64,000 nt of DNA, from the NCBI GenBank assembly GCA_031289755.1, contig JAITOU010000012.1, positions 1 to 64,000 on the forward strand, given 5' to 3'. The notes beneath the pieces were generated by a model. That model saw only the letters and a program-made list of their open reading frames with translations, was not told the DNA's origin and did not search any database. The stretch comes from Clostridiales bacterium (GTDB lineage: Bacteria; Bacillota; Clostridia; Christensenellales; JAISNN01). The stretch's first letter is position 1. Each line of letters starts with the position of its first letter. The position numbers and the translations under genes were made by a program. Positions 1 to 6,152 of the stretch are shown here, piece by piece.

Positions 1-138
1 GAAACAAAGTAATACTTATGCGTTGAGACGACCGCCGGCAATTATTTTCATGCCCTGACGGGCAAGAAGGAAGACGATTCCTTTTTCTCTTTGTACAGGT
101 CTCTCTGCTTAGATGAGACATCGGACGGTAAGAGAAAG
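1..138 (-). other. DGR spacer downstream of the template repeat; leader expected for an off-window reverse transcriptase
   Basis: Read on the minus strand, this is the sequence immediately 3' of the template repeat, where DGRs place the spacer RNA and then the reverse transcriptase gene. It holds a small hairpin (51-64, arms TGCCC/GGGCA, 4-nt loop). The only ATG reading frame here is 11 codons long and ends in TAA. I see no RT motif, so the RT is inferred to start beyond base 1; this is not shown. Confidence 0.5.
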
Positions 139-258
139 CGGACGGACGCCATCGTTGTCATTGTTGACATCGTTGACATTGTTGCCGTCGGAATTGACAT
201 TGCCATTGTTATTCACGTTAGCGGCGCAACCGACCGACGAACTCGGCGACCGTAGCCA
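139..258 (-). repeat. DGR template repeat (TR), 120 bp
   Basis: This 120-bp segment aligns without gaps to 875-994. On the minus (template) strand it has 30 adenines, of which 18 differ in the variable copy (10 A to T, 7 A to G, 1 A to C). None of its 90 non-adenine positions differs. This adenine-only divergence is the hallmark of mutagenic retrohoming. Read as protein it encodes an Asn-rich stretch of AAC/AAT codons, typical of a TR that maximises variability. It lies 84 bp beyond the avd stop codon. An open frame at 109-291 crosses it but is best seen as a non-coding consequence of homology to the target gene. Confidence 0.95.
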
Positions 259-342
259 CGCGGAGCAGTATTCAACCGTATCCCTTGACAAAGCCTTTTA
301 CATTCGGCGCGTTCGGCCGCGCTCTGTAATCGGCTGTTATCT

Positions 343-741
343 CTATCTGTTTTTGTCGCTGTTAATCCACGCGCCGAGAAGCCGTTGGCAATCGGCGGAT
401 TTTAAGGCGATTTGCTCGAACTGCTTGGGCAGCAGACATTGATGCGTCATTGCAAGCTCGCCGAAGTATGCGAGAATTTTTACGTTTGTAAGCGCCTTAT
501 GCTGAAAGTCAAGGCGCATTGCTTTATTTGCGGCTTGATTGCTCCCCTGCCCTATGTAAATCTCGTTTGCACGATAGACGCTCTCGATGATATCGAGCGC
601 AAGATTTTGCAGACGGCTCACGAAGGTGAACCGAAATTGCTTCGGGGACTTTTGCGTCACCGTTATTATGTATGAACATAAATCCTTAGACTTTGTGACT
701 ATCGTCAGGTCGCTTTGCATATTTGTATTGCCGTACGCCAT
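343..741 (-). CDS. avd: DGR accessory variability determinant, Avd-like four-helix-bundle protein
   Basis: This 132-residue protein is recognised as the Avd family. Avd is a small basic helical protein that forms a pentameric barrel, binds the DGR reverse transcriptase and template RNA, and is needed for mutagenic cDNA synthesis. Visible family features are the FRFTFVSRLQNLALDIIESV segment in the first half, a central helix ending in an NVKILAYFGELAM-type stretch, and the C-terminal LLGAWINS motif. It sits between the variable gene and the TR, the usual order target-avd-TR-RT. The start is ATG at 741. A short stand-alone four-helix protein of the 23S-insert family is the only realistic alternative, and the adjoining TR/VR pair argues against that. 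Confidence 0.88.
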   Translation of the reverse strand: MAYGNTNMQSDLTIVTKSKDLCSYIITVTQKSPKQFRFTFVSRLQNLALDIIESVYRANEIYIGQGSNQAANKAMRLDFQHKALTNVKILAYFGELAMTHQCLLPKQFEQIALKSADCQRLLGAWINSDKNR

Positions 742-820
742 TTTTTTCTCACTTTTTTGTCCGCTTCGCGGATAGGCTTCCCTGCGACCCGATAGCTTTG
801 TAACGCGCCGTTTTTAGATT

Positions 821-835
821 GCCGCCTGCGGCGGT
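821..835 (-). other. GC-rich hairpin downstream of the variable repeat
   Basis: Arms GCCGCC and GGCGGT form a six-base-pair stem (one G-T pair) with a 3-nt loop, 19 bp past the stop codon of the variable gene and 39 bp past the VR end. Characterised DGRs often have a hairpin or cruciform just 3' of VR that helps target recognition. The assignment is by position and shape only, and a weak terminator is also possible. Confidence 0.45.
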
Positions 836-853
836 AGATTTAAAGATTCCGGA

Positions 854-1900
854 TTACAGATTTAACCATAAAGCCGGACGGACGCCATCGTCGGCAAAGT
901 CGACACCGTAGACATAGATGCCGACGGAACTGACACAGCCATAGTCATCCACGAAAGCGGCGCAACCGACCGACGAACTCGGCGACCGTAGCCAATACCA
1001 TGATTTACCAAAATATTCGGTTACTTTTTGTTCTTTATATATTCCGGCATCTGGATACAAGCCTTGATTATTTGCATACGGCGTTCCCGTTGCTTGTGCT
1101 AACGGAGTTATTGTATAGTTTTCTAATCCCTTATATCCCGTTAATTCCTTTTCATAAAAACCCCACGTTCCCTTTTGTTTCGCCCCAAACGCTTCTCTCG
1201 CTTCGTCAATGCTAAGTAAAAATACCTTGCTTCCTATTTCGCTTTTTTCTATGATGTTACGCTGCTCCCCGTCTTTAAACGCCTTTTTGTAAAATCCATT
1301 ATTTAGCCATTTGCACAGGTCTGATTGCGTCCAAAACTTACGGCACGACGCTTCGTTTTGGTAAAACTTATCGTTGTCTTTTTTTAAAGTTTTCCAATCT
1401 TCGATTGTATTATGATACGGTTTGCAAGCAAGTATTTGCTCCGATACAAAAAGCCCCTTTCCGTTTTCTTCTTTTAAGCAAATCCATCTAATCTTAGTGT
1501 CTTTATCAGTTCCGGCTTTGTTTGTCGGATGCCGTCCGAAAGTGTACACTGTCCGATTATGCCCGTATATGTCTTTATCCGGCTCTAAAACCGGTTTGAC
1601 AATGTCCGACGCGGCGTCGTTAGCCGTTTTACTTGCTTCCGCCGGAGTGGAGTCCGGCTCTTGAACGGCAACAACGTCAGAAGTCGATGTCTTTTTGCTT
1701 CGATGTTTTTTATAAAAATTGGCTACTAACAAACTAATCCCTATTAAAAGAACAACAATAGTCGCTATCAAGCCCGGTATAGATTCTTTGGCAAGCGCCA
1801 CAATAACGCCTATTGTAGCAATGGTAGACATTACGCCACCAGCTACGAGCGTTATGAATTTAAAGTCTTCTGTTGTTGTTATATTATTTTTATTATCCAT
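854..1900 (-). CDS. DGR target: membrane-anchored variable protein with DUF6273/C-type-lectin-like domain
   Basis: The 348-residue protein starts at ATG 1900 behind a strong GGGGGGAG site. Residues about 14-62 form two hydrophobic helices, which suggests membrane anchoring with the rest displayed. A low-complexity linker rich in Ser/Thr/Ala/Asp runs to about 110. The C-terminal 230 residues resemble the DUF6273 family (W-containing, ending DDGVRPALWLNL), a fold related to the C-type-lectin/FGE domains that DGRs usually diversify. Residues 303-342 are the variable repeat, exactly 40 codons in frame. 15 residues differ from the TR-encoded version, all between 316 and 337. A promoter lies at 1957-1985. 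The ligand is unknown; surface display is inferred from the helices. Confidence 0.88.
   Translation of the reverse strand: MDNKNNITTTEDFKFITLVAGGVMSTIATIGVIVALAKESIPGLIATIVVLLIGISLLVANFYKKHRSKKTSTSDVVAVQEPDSTPAEASKTANDAASDIVKPVLEPDKDIYGHNRTVYTFGRHPTNKAGTDKDTKIRWICLKEENGKGLFVSEQILACKPYHNTIEDWKTLKKDNDKFYQNEASCRKFWTQSDLCKWLNNGFYKKAFKDGEQRNIIEKSEIGSKVFLLSIDEAREAFGAKQKGTWGFYEKELTGYKGLENYTITPLAQATGTPYANNQGLYPDAGIYKEQKVTEYFGKSWYWLRSPSSSVGCAAFVDDYGCVSSVGIYVYGVDFADDGVRPALWLNL
875..994 (-). repeat. DGR variable repeat (VR), 120 bp
   Basis: This is the variable copy of the 139-258 template. The first 38 bp on the coding strand (956-994 side) match the TR, and so do the last 16 bp (875-890); the latter is the likely initiation-of-mutagenic-homing end. 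The 18 substitutions lie between 892 and 955 and replace Asn/Asp codons of the template with Phe, Tyr, Cys, Ile, Val, Ser, Gly, Ala and Asp codons. The reading frame and all Gly/Val scaffold codons are kept, so the gene looks functional and already diversified. Confidence 0.95.
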
Positions 1901-1954: not shown

Positions 1955-2007
1955 ATATTATAACACAAAAATTTAATGTCCGCAATAATTATCTATTAAT
2001 TTGTGTA
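1955..2007. repeat. 53-bp direct repeat, left copy (carries a promoter)
   Basis: This segment matches 3135-3187 at 52 of 53 positions (only 1966/3146 differs). Each copy contains a complete minus-strand promoter, so the DGR target and the fic gene are driven from the same duplicated upstream region. Confidence 0.93.
1957..1985 (-). promoter_or_regulatory. Predicted sigma-A promoter of the DGR target gene
   Basis: On the minus strand, -35 TTGCGG (1985-1980) and a perfect -10 TATAAT (1962-1957) are separated by 17 bp, about 57 bp upstream of the ATG at 1900. It probably also feeds avd and the TR, since no better promoter was seen between them. Confidence 0.7.
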
Positions 2008-2099: not shown

Positions 2100-3002
2100 T
2101 CATTCCTTATCAATATGAATGGGTTCGTCCGGTTCTTCATAATAATATGAATAATCAATACCTTTCATAAAGATTTCACGGTCATTTATCTTGTCGGTTA
2201 ATGCACCATTCAAAAGGCTTTTAATATCGCTTGTGTCTGTGTGGCTTTCAATCATTGCGTTCAAATAATCGTTTTTATCTATATTGCTCCAATCAATACA
2301 TTTTTTCAAGCTTCGTCTAAAAATTAAATCAAGCCATATTCGTGTGCTTCTGCCGTTGCCTTCCATAAAGGGGTGAGCAACATTCATTTCAACATATTTG
2401 TCCACAATTTCATCAAAGGTTGTTTCCGGCATAAGCTCAATGTTCTTTAATGCCATTGGTAAAAATTGGGCAGGGGCGAAAGTAAAGCCACCCTTTGAAA
2501 TTGTAAGATGACGAATTTGTCCGGCAAAATCATAAAGCCCACCAAAGATATAGGCGTGAATTTTTTGAAGTGCTTTAACACTGCCAACTTCGGTGTCGCC
2601 AATTAAATTACTGTCCCAAAATGTATATGCTTTCTTCTTGCTTTGTCCGTCAATAGTGTTATCGCTGTATAAAAACCAATCTAAAAATCTATTTGCCTTA
2701 TTGTTTGGAAATTGTTTTGCAAGTTTAATAATATTGTCGCTGTCAAGAGTATCTGTTAAACGACGTTTGCCGTCAGGCGCAAGCAGCTTGAACCCGTGAG
2801 TGGCACTCACGACTTCGTTCTTTTCTTCCGCAAGTTTTCGTTTCAGCCAACGCCAATAATTACCCGCTTTTGAAAAATCGTCTTGCCCGTTCAAAATGCC
2901 CACAATATCTACAACCGAAAAATACCATTTGTTGTCGTATTCATTCCAAATGGCACGCACTTCTTTTTTATCAAAAAAACGAATTGAAATTTTGTTTTCC
3001 AT
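2100..3002 (-). CDS. fic: Fic-domain protein with N-terminal BRO-N-like domain
   Basis: The start is placed at ATG 3002, which has a GAGGAG site directly upstream; an in-frame ATG at 3080 would add 26 residues without a clear site. The 300-residue protein has a BRO-N-like front (about 1-110, with KKEVRAIWNEYDNKWYFSVV), common in phage and mobile-element proteins. A Fic domain follows, with the catalytic motif HPFMEGNGRSTR near residue 210. Fic proteins usually transfer AMP from ATP to Ser/Thr/Tyr of a target. I did not find a clear inhibitory (S/T)xxxE(G/N) helix, and no separate antitoxin gene is adjacent. A bacterial toxin or defence role is inferred. Gene and flanks are bracketed by the 53-bp direct repeats. 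Confidence 0.85.
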   Translation of the reverse strand: MENKISIRFFDKKEVRAIWNEYDNKWYFSVVDIVGILNGQDDFSKAGNYWRWLKRKLAEEKNEVVSATHGFKLLAPDGKRRLTDTLDSDNIIKLAKQFPNNKANRFLDWFLYSDNTIDGQSKKKAYTFWDSNLIGDTEVGSVKALQKIHAYIFGGLYDFAGQIRHLTISKGGFTFAPAQFLPMALKNIELMPETTFDEIVDKYVEMNVAHPFMEGNGRSTRIWLDLIFRRSLKKCIDWSNIDKNDYLNAMIESHTDTSDIKSLLNGALTDKINDREIFMKGIDYSYYYEEPDEPIHIDKE

Positions 3003-3134
3003 TTTCAATCTCCTCAATGATTTAGTCAATATCACGGCGTAAAATATCACTTCGCTTTGTGATTTTGGTTGTTTCGGCATTTAGTATATTAACGTCAACT
3101 TCTTCGGTTGTGTTTGGTAATTTTTTACTTTGTC

Positions 3135-3187
3135 ATATTATAACAGAAAAATTTAATGTCCGCAATAATTATCTATTAATTTGTGTA
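3135..3187. repeat. 53-bp direct repeat, right copy
   Basis: Copy of 1955-2007 with one mismatch. It lies 75 bp from the 3' end of tRNA-Ser, between the tRNA terminator and fic. Confidence 0.93.
3137..3165 (-). promoter_or_regulatory. Predicted sigma-A promoter of fic
   Basis: Same promoter as at 1957-1985, within the direct repeat: TTGCGG (3165-3160), 17 bp, TATAAT (3142-3137). The leader to the fic ATG at 3002 is about 130 nt. Confidence 0.68.
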
Positions 3188-3262: not shown

Positions 3263-3354
3263 TGGCGGAGAAGCCGGGATTCGAACCCGGGCGAGACTAT
3301 TCACCTCCTACACCCTTAGCAGGGGCGCCTCTTCGACCTCTTGAGTACTTCTCC
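3263..3354 (-). tRNA. tRNA-Ser (anticodon GCT)
   Basis: The minus strand folds as a class II tRNA. It has a 7-bp acceptor stem GGAGAAG/CTTCTCC, discriminator G with encoded CCA, T-arm GGGTTCGAATCCC, and a long variable arm typical of serine. The anticodon loop CTGCTAA gives anticodon GCT (complement of 3318-3320), reading AGC/AGU codons. It marks the chromosomal edge of the accessory island and could have served as an integration site. Confidence 0.95.
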
Positions 3355-5820: not shown

Positions 5821-5861
5821 GATATGTATCTCCTTTTTTATGTGTCTGCTTTGTAAGAACG

Positions 5862-6152
5862 CTATTCTTTTATTTGCTCTTTATGTTTTGCACTCCGCTT
5901 TGTACGGTCGTGAATTTTTGCAATAAAGTTATTCTTCTATATGCTCTTTATATTTTGCACTCCGCTTTGTACGGTCGTGAATTTTTTATAACAAGGTTAT
6001 TCTTCTATATGCTCTTTATGTTTCGCATTCCGCTTTGTGCGTCGTGAATTTTTGCAATAAAGTTATTCTTCTATATGCTCTTTATATTTTGCACTCCGCT
6101 TTGTACGGTCGTGAATTTTTTATAACAAGGTTATTCTTCTATATGCTCTCTT
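5862..6152. repeat. Tandem 66-68 bp repeats, about 4.3 copies, derived from the 3' end of cadC
   Basis: Units begin near 5862, 5929, 5997 and 6063, and a partial unit at 6131-6152 is the actual end of the cadC coding sequence. Each unit therefore repeats the last seven codons of cadC including its stop, followed by about 45 bp of spacer. The array separates cadC from the HMA gene and contains no ORF of interest. Confidence 0.92.

What the first reader, a model, noticed from the sequence alone, without database searches (positions are those of the whole stretch)
1..1900. Diversity-generating retroelement with membrane-displayed lectin-like target
Seen directly: TR 139-258 and VR 875-994 align over 120 bp without gaps. 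All 18 mismatches are at the 30 adenines of the template strand and none at the 90 other bases. TR codes AAC/AAT runs; VR is exactly codons 303-342 of a gene whose front has two membrane helices. Established: this bias, an Avd-like gene and the order target-avd-TR define DGRs; an RT gene should follow the TR. Inference: the organism diversifies a surface binding protein. No ligand is known.
Basis: partly seen in the sequence, partly recalled or inferred. Interest (0 to 1): 0.92.

Follow-up and report, generated by a model that had tools for sequence, protein, structure and literature searches.

The report
Self-mutating sensor cassette, probably intracellular
A gut-type Clostridia bacterium carries a genuine retroelement that rewrites the tip of one of its own proteins, and relatives use the same cassette to vary the sensing end of immune-like proteins, so the protein is more likely a randomised intracellular alarm than a surface lectin.

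Summary
It is a real diversity-generating retroelement (DGR). The window's base 1 is a contig end, but the 'missing' reverse transcriptase is in the genome: its last 51 codons lie at the very end of contig C45, so the RT gene most simply spans an assembly gap. The 138 bases after the TR carry a structured RNA conserved, with strong covariation, in complete relatives and absent from Rfam; a model of it finds one copy in this genome, and all seven matches in other sampled genomes of the order lie at DGRs.

The 'membrane-displayed surface lectin' reading is not supported. The two N-terminal helices form a hairpin followed by KKHRSKK, which puts the variable DUF6273 domain in the cytosol. In relatives with the same cassette, verified variable domains sit behind TIR, SIR2, NACHT and Tmn-like ATPase domains, though others are lipoproteins or wall proteins. 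Best reading: an anticipatory intracellular sensor joined to a two-helix membrane part, of the kind proposed for multicellular bacteria (PMC10907252), here in Clostridia. The DGR is certain; the immune role is inferred. New variant of a known kind.

The parts
854..1900 (-). DGR target gene, 348 aa: two-helix membrane hairpin, linker, C-terminal DUF6273 domain with the VR
   Evidence: ORF; DUF6273 PF19789 E=3.9e-14; model pLDDT 75 with helices 12-37 and 42-67
1712..1858 (-). two predicted transmembrane helices (residues 15-36 and 42-62) with a loop of about 5 residues
   Evidence: hydropathy; helices in the model
1691..1711 (-). KKHRSKK (residues 64-70) after helix 2: positive-inside signal, predicts a cytosolic C-terminal domain
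   Evidence: sequence; positive-inside rule is established knowledge
875..994 (-). variable region (VR), codons 303-342
   Evidence: 18 of 18 mismatches to the TR at template adenines
822..834 (-). candidate hairpin after the VR, CCGCC-GCA-GGCGG; same core as relatives' post-VR hairpins but the stem is only 5 bp
   Evidence: role of such hairpins in PMC3240598; candidate only
343..741 (-). avd, accessory variability determinant, 132 aa
   Evidence: NF033474 6e-12, PF22296 6.5e-9; 45-63% identical to avd of relatives' cassettes
139..258 (-). template repeat (TR)
   Evidence: only one copy of the pair in the genome
1..146 (-). structured spacer RNA downstream of (and touching the 3' end of) the TR, conserved across this DGR group
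   Evidence: covariation in 25 loci; window fold z=-3.9; covariance model 100.6 bits (the window was one of the 25 rows); no Rfam match
1955..2007 (-). upstream element of the target gene, 98% identical to the one at 3135-3187 upstream of the fic gene, at the same distance (54 bp) from the start codon

Best explanation
A chromosomal diversity-generating retroelement. Shown: target gene with VR, avd, TR, structured spacer RNA and the 3' end of an RT gene of the same group (on another contig end). Established for the family: the RT-Avd complex copies the TR RNA with errors at adenines and the cDNA overwrites the VR, here a potential of about 10^17 protein variants. Inferred: the rewritten DUF6273 domain hangs into the cytosol from a two-helix membrane hairpin and acts as a randomised sensor; ligand binding (for example a phage protein) would trigger the membrane part, as in effector-plus-sensor immune proteins. 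My confidence: DGR 0.98; variable domain cytosolic 0.75; immune-type sensor 0.5.
For: DGR: A-only mismatches; avd; 42 of 54 relatives with at least 1.5 kb after avd have an RT there; RT C-terminus of 51 codons plus stop at the end of contig C45, E down to 4e-13 against relatives' RTs; spacer RNA with 30 pairs, 89% of cells paired against about 50% in slid controls, 22 pairs with double changes, and the model's matches outside the training rows lie at DGR loci. Absence of any change at the 90 non-A bases implies recent rewriting. Cytosolic: helix hairpin plus KKHRSKK. Immune-type: verified VRs in relatives on TIR (L088, L098), SIR2 (L080), NACHT (L058/L074) and YobI/Tmn-like ATPase (L073) proteins; window avd lies in a supported clade (96/85) of 20 rows in which 13 of the 16 labelled rows are intracellular types (the window counted as one) and 3 lipoproteins; same genome has a TIR-DUF6273 protein beside an IetA-like AAA ATPase and a trypsin-like protease.
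Against: No known effector domain in the target itself and no PADLOC hit. Topology rests on the positive-inside rule, not on a dedicated predictor. Close avd relatives also diversify lipoproteins (L069, L072, L076). The RT catalytic core is in the gap and was not seen. The IetA/TIR genes are on another contig (C18), and the VR-like stretch there is not a recent copy of this TR.
Confidence: 0.55

Rival explanations
1. Surface-displayed binding protein: the DGR varies an adhesin or receptor exposed outside the cell.
For: Most cellular DGR targets with membrane segments are described as surface binders (PMC8144416); lipoprotein and wall-anchored targets occur in related cassettes.
Against: No cleavable signal peptide, lipobox or wall-sorting signal seen; two-helix hairpin with KKHRSKK after helix 2 puts the domain inside; even if helix 1 were a cleaved signal peptide, helix 2 would again put the C-terminus inside.
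Confidence: 0.22
2. Intracellular sensor with a non-immune job (kin recognition or signal tuning) whose output is not defence.
For: Alternative put forward for DGR sensors in multicellular bacteria (PMC10907252); no effector domain recognised in this target.
Against: N-termini of sister targets are TIR, SIR2, NACHT and Tmn-like domains typical of anti-phage systems.
Confidence: 0.18
3. A decayed or orphan cassette without a working reverse transcriptase.
For: Complete RT not seen; no RVT_1 match in the 93%-complete assembly; 12 of 54 relatives have avd without a detected RT.
Against: RT 3' end with its stop codon lies intact at the end of C45; VR shows no drift at 90 non-A bases, so rewriting was recent; spacer RNA well conserved.
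Confidence: 0.05

Closest known systems
DGR of Bordetella phage BPP-1 (mtd-avd-TR-brt)
   Same: Order target-avd-TR-RT, A-only mutagenesis, C-terminal VR, structured spacer between TR and RT (spacer role: PMC12875486)
   Different: Chromosomal, target is DUF6273 with a membrane hairpin rather than a phage tail protein; spacer RNA was not compared with BPP-1's; post-VR hairpin is short
[quoted passage not shown] PMC10907252)
   Same: DGR varies the C-terminal sensor of NACHT, TIR or membrane proteins (NACHT and TIR in relatives of the window, a membrane protein in the window); trypsin and AAA genes occur in the same genome
   Different: Clostridia and other gut bacteria, DUF6273 instead of FGE-type sensor; that paper's main text does not mention Firmicutes, Bacillota, Clostridia or DUF6273; RT clade not tested here because the RT core is missing
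DUF6273 DGR targets in Faecalibacterium prophages and other phages (PMC11792537, PMC10743442)
   Same: DGR varies a DUF6273 domain; VR at the C-terminal end of DUF6273 in the Faecalibacterium prophages
   Different: Phage proteins thought to bind host surfaces; here cellular and most probably cytosolic

Membership tests
Diversity-generating retroelement | TR/VR pair differing only at template adenines | tested here: met
   18 of 18 mismatches at 30 A of 120 nt, p 8e-14
Diversity-generating retroelement | VR at the C-terminal end of a target gene, in frame | tested here: met
   codons 303-342 of 348
Diversity-generating retroelement | avd or other accessory gene | tested here: met
   NF033474/PF22296 below cut-off, 45-63% identity to avd of relatives' cassettes
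Diversity-generating retroelement | DGR-type reverse transcriptase nearby | tested here: inconclusive
   C-terminal 51 codons at the end of contig C45; catalytic core lies in the assembly gap and the contig join is inferred
Diversity-generating retroelement | structured RNA between TR and RT | tested here: met
   covariation, fold z=-3.9, model score 100.6 bits
Diversity-generating retroelement | hairpin downstream of the VR | tested here: inconclusive
   5-bp stem CCGCC-GCA-GGCGG at 822-834; many relatives have 7-10 bp
Diversity-generating retroelement | VR variation in the population | not testable with these tools
   no reads; metagenome scans not available
C-type-lectin-fold variable protein | CLec fold of the VR domain | tested here: inconclusive
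   PDB fold search matched only IgA peptidase 9qa6, whose N-terminal domain is DUF6273; literature reports DALI similarity of DUF6273 to C-lec (PMC10743442)
Surface-displayed DGR target | VR domain outside the membrane | tested here: not met
   helix hairpin followed by KKHRSKK predicts cytosolic domain; prediction only
DGR-diversified conflict-system sensor | recognised effector or STAND domain in the target | tested here: not met
   no Pfam or PADLOC effector hit in the window target; met in relatives L058, L073, L080, L088, L098

The most novel reading that the evidence does not exclude
Clostridia of termite and ruminant guts use a DGR subfamily with its own conserved spacer RNA to pre-randomise intracellular immune receptors (TIR-, SIR2-, NACHT-, Tmn-like and, here, a two-helix membrane effector fused to DUF6273), so anticipatory, antibody-like immunity would not be special to multicellular bacteria.
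Probability: 0.4. Interest if true: 0.82.

Novelty: new variant of a known kind. Interest (0 to 1): 0.6.

Why it matters
If the cytosolic reading is right, the cassette is a bacterial immune receptor whose sensing tip is re-randomised in each lineage. The idea has been proposed for multicellular bacteria and is untested; this group brings it to gut Clostridia with small, single-gene TIR, SIR2 and membrane-hairpin versions that can be expressed and tested in laboratory strains. The conserved spacer RNA gives a way to find such cassettes even when assemblies have lost the RT.

Tried and rejected
RTs of the same-genus genomes G001 and G004 lack the DGR motif and look retron-type (by eye): not the missing RT. 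Second copies of TR or VR: none in the genome. C18 paralogue as a second target of this TR: over a 60-nt stretch 12 of 16 mismatches are at template A (p 8e-5) but the flanks have drifted, so at most an old or differently templated VR. avd scan of viral contigs: no relative, and the flanks are chromosomal, so no evidence of a phage. N-terminal hairpin: no homologue among held ORFs. Target search over 391 genomes of the class: matches at E<=1e-10 only in the own genome. Rfam: no family.

Full report
Observation. TR 139-258 and VR 875-994, both on the minus strand, align over 120 nt without gaps; 18 mismatches, all at the 30 template adenines, chance 8e-14. VR is codons 303-342 of the 348-codon ORF 854-1900. 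All 12 Asn codons of the template differ in the VR and none of the 16 Asn/Asp codons can turn into a stop; the reachable protein diversity is about 10^17. No base outside the adenines has changed, so the VR was rewritten recently.

The missing reverse transcriptase. The window begins at the end of contig C26. A Pfam RT search of the 46-contig, 93%-complete assembly found nothing. A relative's RT as query found one place: the last 150 bases of contig C45 (28,003 bases long) encode, on the minus strand, 51 codons and a stop that match the C-terminus of this group's RTs (AHLKHGHTYRL block; E down to 4e-13 against relatives; model positions 303-346 of 349). The simplest reading is that the RT gene bridges the gap between C26:1 and C45:28003, with about 300 codons unassembled. 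That the two contig ends join is an inference; the RT core was not seen. Beyond the RT on C45 lie ordinary chromosomal genes.

Relatives. avd homologues at up to 65% identity occur in the same order and 63 named loci were fetched, mostly termite-gut and rumen Clostridia. Of 54 loci with at least 1.5 kb beyond avd, 42 have an RT there; where a pair was found, the order is usually target-avd-TR-RT, with the RT frame opening within about 440 bases of the TR. In some loci the target lies after the RT. The window holds only 138 bases beyond its TR, so the RT body could not have been in view. Note that the pair finder reports only runs without non-A mismatches, so the A-only pattern in relatives is partly by construction.

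Spacer RNA. The 138 bases after the TR align with the TR-RT spacers of 24 relatives. A 30-pair structure was counted: 89% of cells pair, against 41-52% when the partners are slid; 22 pairs show changes on both sides; covariation score 0.496 against 0.11-0.16. One helix pairs the bases just after the TR with a downstream segment. The window RNA folds at -47 kcal/mol, z -3.9. A covariance model scores the window (one of its training rows) at 100.6 bits and finds the element in 16 loci not used to build it, next to avd or the RT where checked; in 297 genomes of the order it finds eight, the window being one: six others lie at DGR loci already found by avd, and the eighth, G128, sits beside an RT. 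Rfam has no such family. In BPP-1 the equivalent spacer recruits the RT-Avd complex and primes cDNA (PMC12875486); the same role here is inferred.

Target. DUF6273. Two hydrophobic helices (15-36, 42-62) with a loop of about five residues are followed by KKHRSKK; the model shows two long helices and a well-predicted C-terminal domain. By the positive-inside rule both ends are cytosolic. If helix 1 were a cleaved signal peptide the C-terminus would still be inside. Fold search matched only an IgA peptidase that carries a DUF6273 domain; the lectin-fold statement rests on published modelling of phage DUF6273 proteins (PMC10743442).

What relatives do with the cassette. Targets with a verified TR/VR pair include TIR-TPR-DUF6273 (L088, L098), SIR2-DUF6273 (L080; PADLOC LmuA and ThsA), NACHT-DUF6273 (L058/L074; NACHT hit below cut-off, P-loop seen by eye) and a YobI-type ATPase-DUF6273 (L073; PADLOC Tmn 2.5e-26). 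TIR-DUF6273 next to avd without a verified pair: L122, L127. Others are surface proteins: lipoproteins, leucine-rich repeats, LysM. In the avd tree the window falls in a supported clade of 20 rows, of which 13 of the 16 labelled rows carry intracellular-type targets (window counted) and 3 lipoproteins. I assigned these labels from sequence features.

Own genome. It holds four more DUF6273 proteins: two on C18 and two on C22. C18 carries an IetA-like AAA ATPase, a trypsin-like protease, a DUF6273 protein and a TIR-DUF6273 protein cut by the contig end. This is a conflict-type island, but its link to this DGR is unproven.

Setting. The gene upstream is a Bro-N/Fic protein (PADLOC candidate PDC-S04, 4e-157). 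A 53-bp element, 98% identical, lies 54 bp before both the fic and the target start codons. A tRNA-Ser(GCT) gene follows; in all five same-genus genomes the close similarity stops at its 3' end, and what lies beyond varies: in G004 genes that look like type I restriction-modification genes, in G005 a transposase-like region some 2 kb away (by eye). None of the five has the avd, the target or the RNA. A defence-type hotspot is plausible.

Literature. DGR-diversified sensors in NACHT and ternary conflict systems are proposed for multicellular bacteria (PMC10907252). Text searches for DGR with SIR2, TIR or DUF6273 found no report of this combination in Clostridia among the titles and passages seen; the library is open-access only, so prior reports may exist.

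Verdict. DGR: certain. Surface display: unlikely. Immune-type cytosolic sensor: the best-supported reading at about even odds, inferred from topology and sister targets. New variant of a known kind.

Noticed in passing
window 1955-2007 and 3135-3187: 53-bp direct repeat (98%) at the same 54-bp distance upstream of the DGR target and the fic gene: shared promoter or the trace of a recombination; co-regulation possible.
   Followed up: partly
window 2100-3080 (-): Bro-N plus Fic-domain protein, near-full match to PADLOC phage-defence candidate PDC-S04.
   Followed up: partly
window 3263-3354 (-): tRNA-Ser(GCT) marks a variable site in the genus; one congener (G004) has what look like type I restriction-modification genes there.
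   Followed up: partly
G000:C18:7600-13243 (L010): IetA-like AAA ATPase, trypsin-like protease, DUF6273 protein and TIR-DUF6273 protein, the last cut by the contig end; the DUF6273 protein has a VR-like stretch resembling this TR but drifted.
   Followed up: partly
G000:C22:34449-37469 (L011): Two tandem DUF6273 paralogues with helical N-termini; conserved body but strongly diverged C-terminal tips, no template found.
   Followed up: partly
L086, L087, L090, L091, L109, L128: Contigs labelled Betaproteobacteria, Accumulibacter, Synergistaceae, Propionibacteriaceae and Zoogloeaceae carry avd related to the Clostridia ones: cross-phylum transfer or mis-binning.
   Followed up: no
L081, L085, L093, L094, L104, L111, L113, L114, L125, L126, L127, L129: avd with at least 1.5 kb downstream but no RT detected: possibly orphan or broken cassettes.
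   Followed up: no
window 5840-6149: About four copies of a 67-bp tandem repeat between the heavy-metal gene cluster and an ArsR-type regulator.
   Followed up: no
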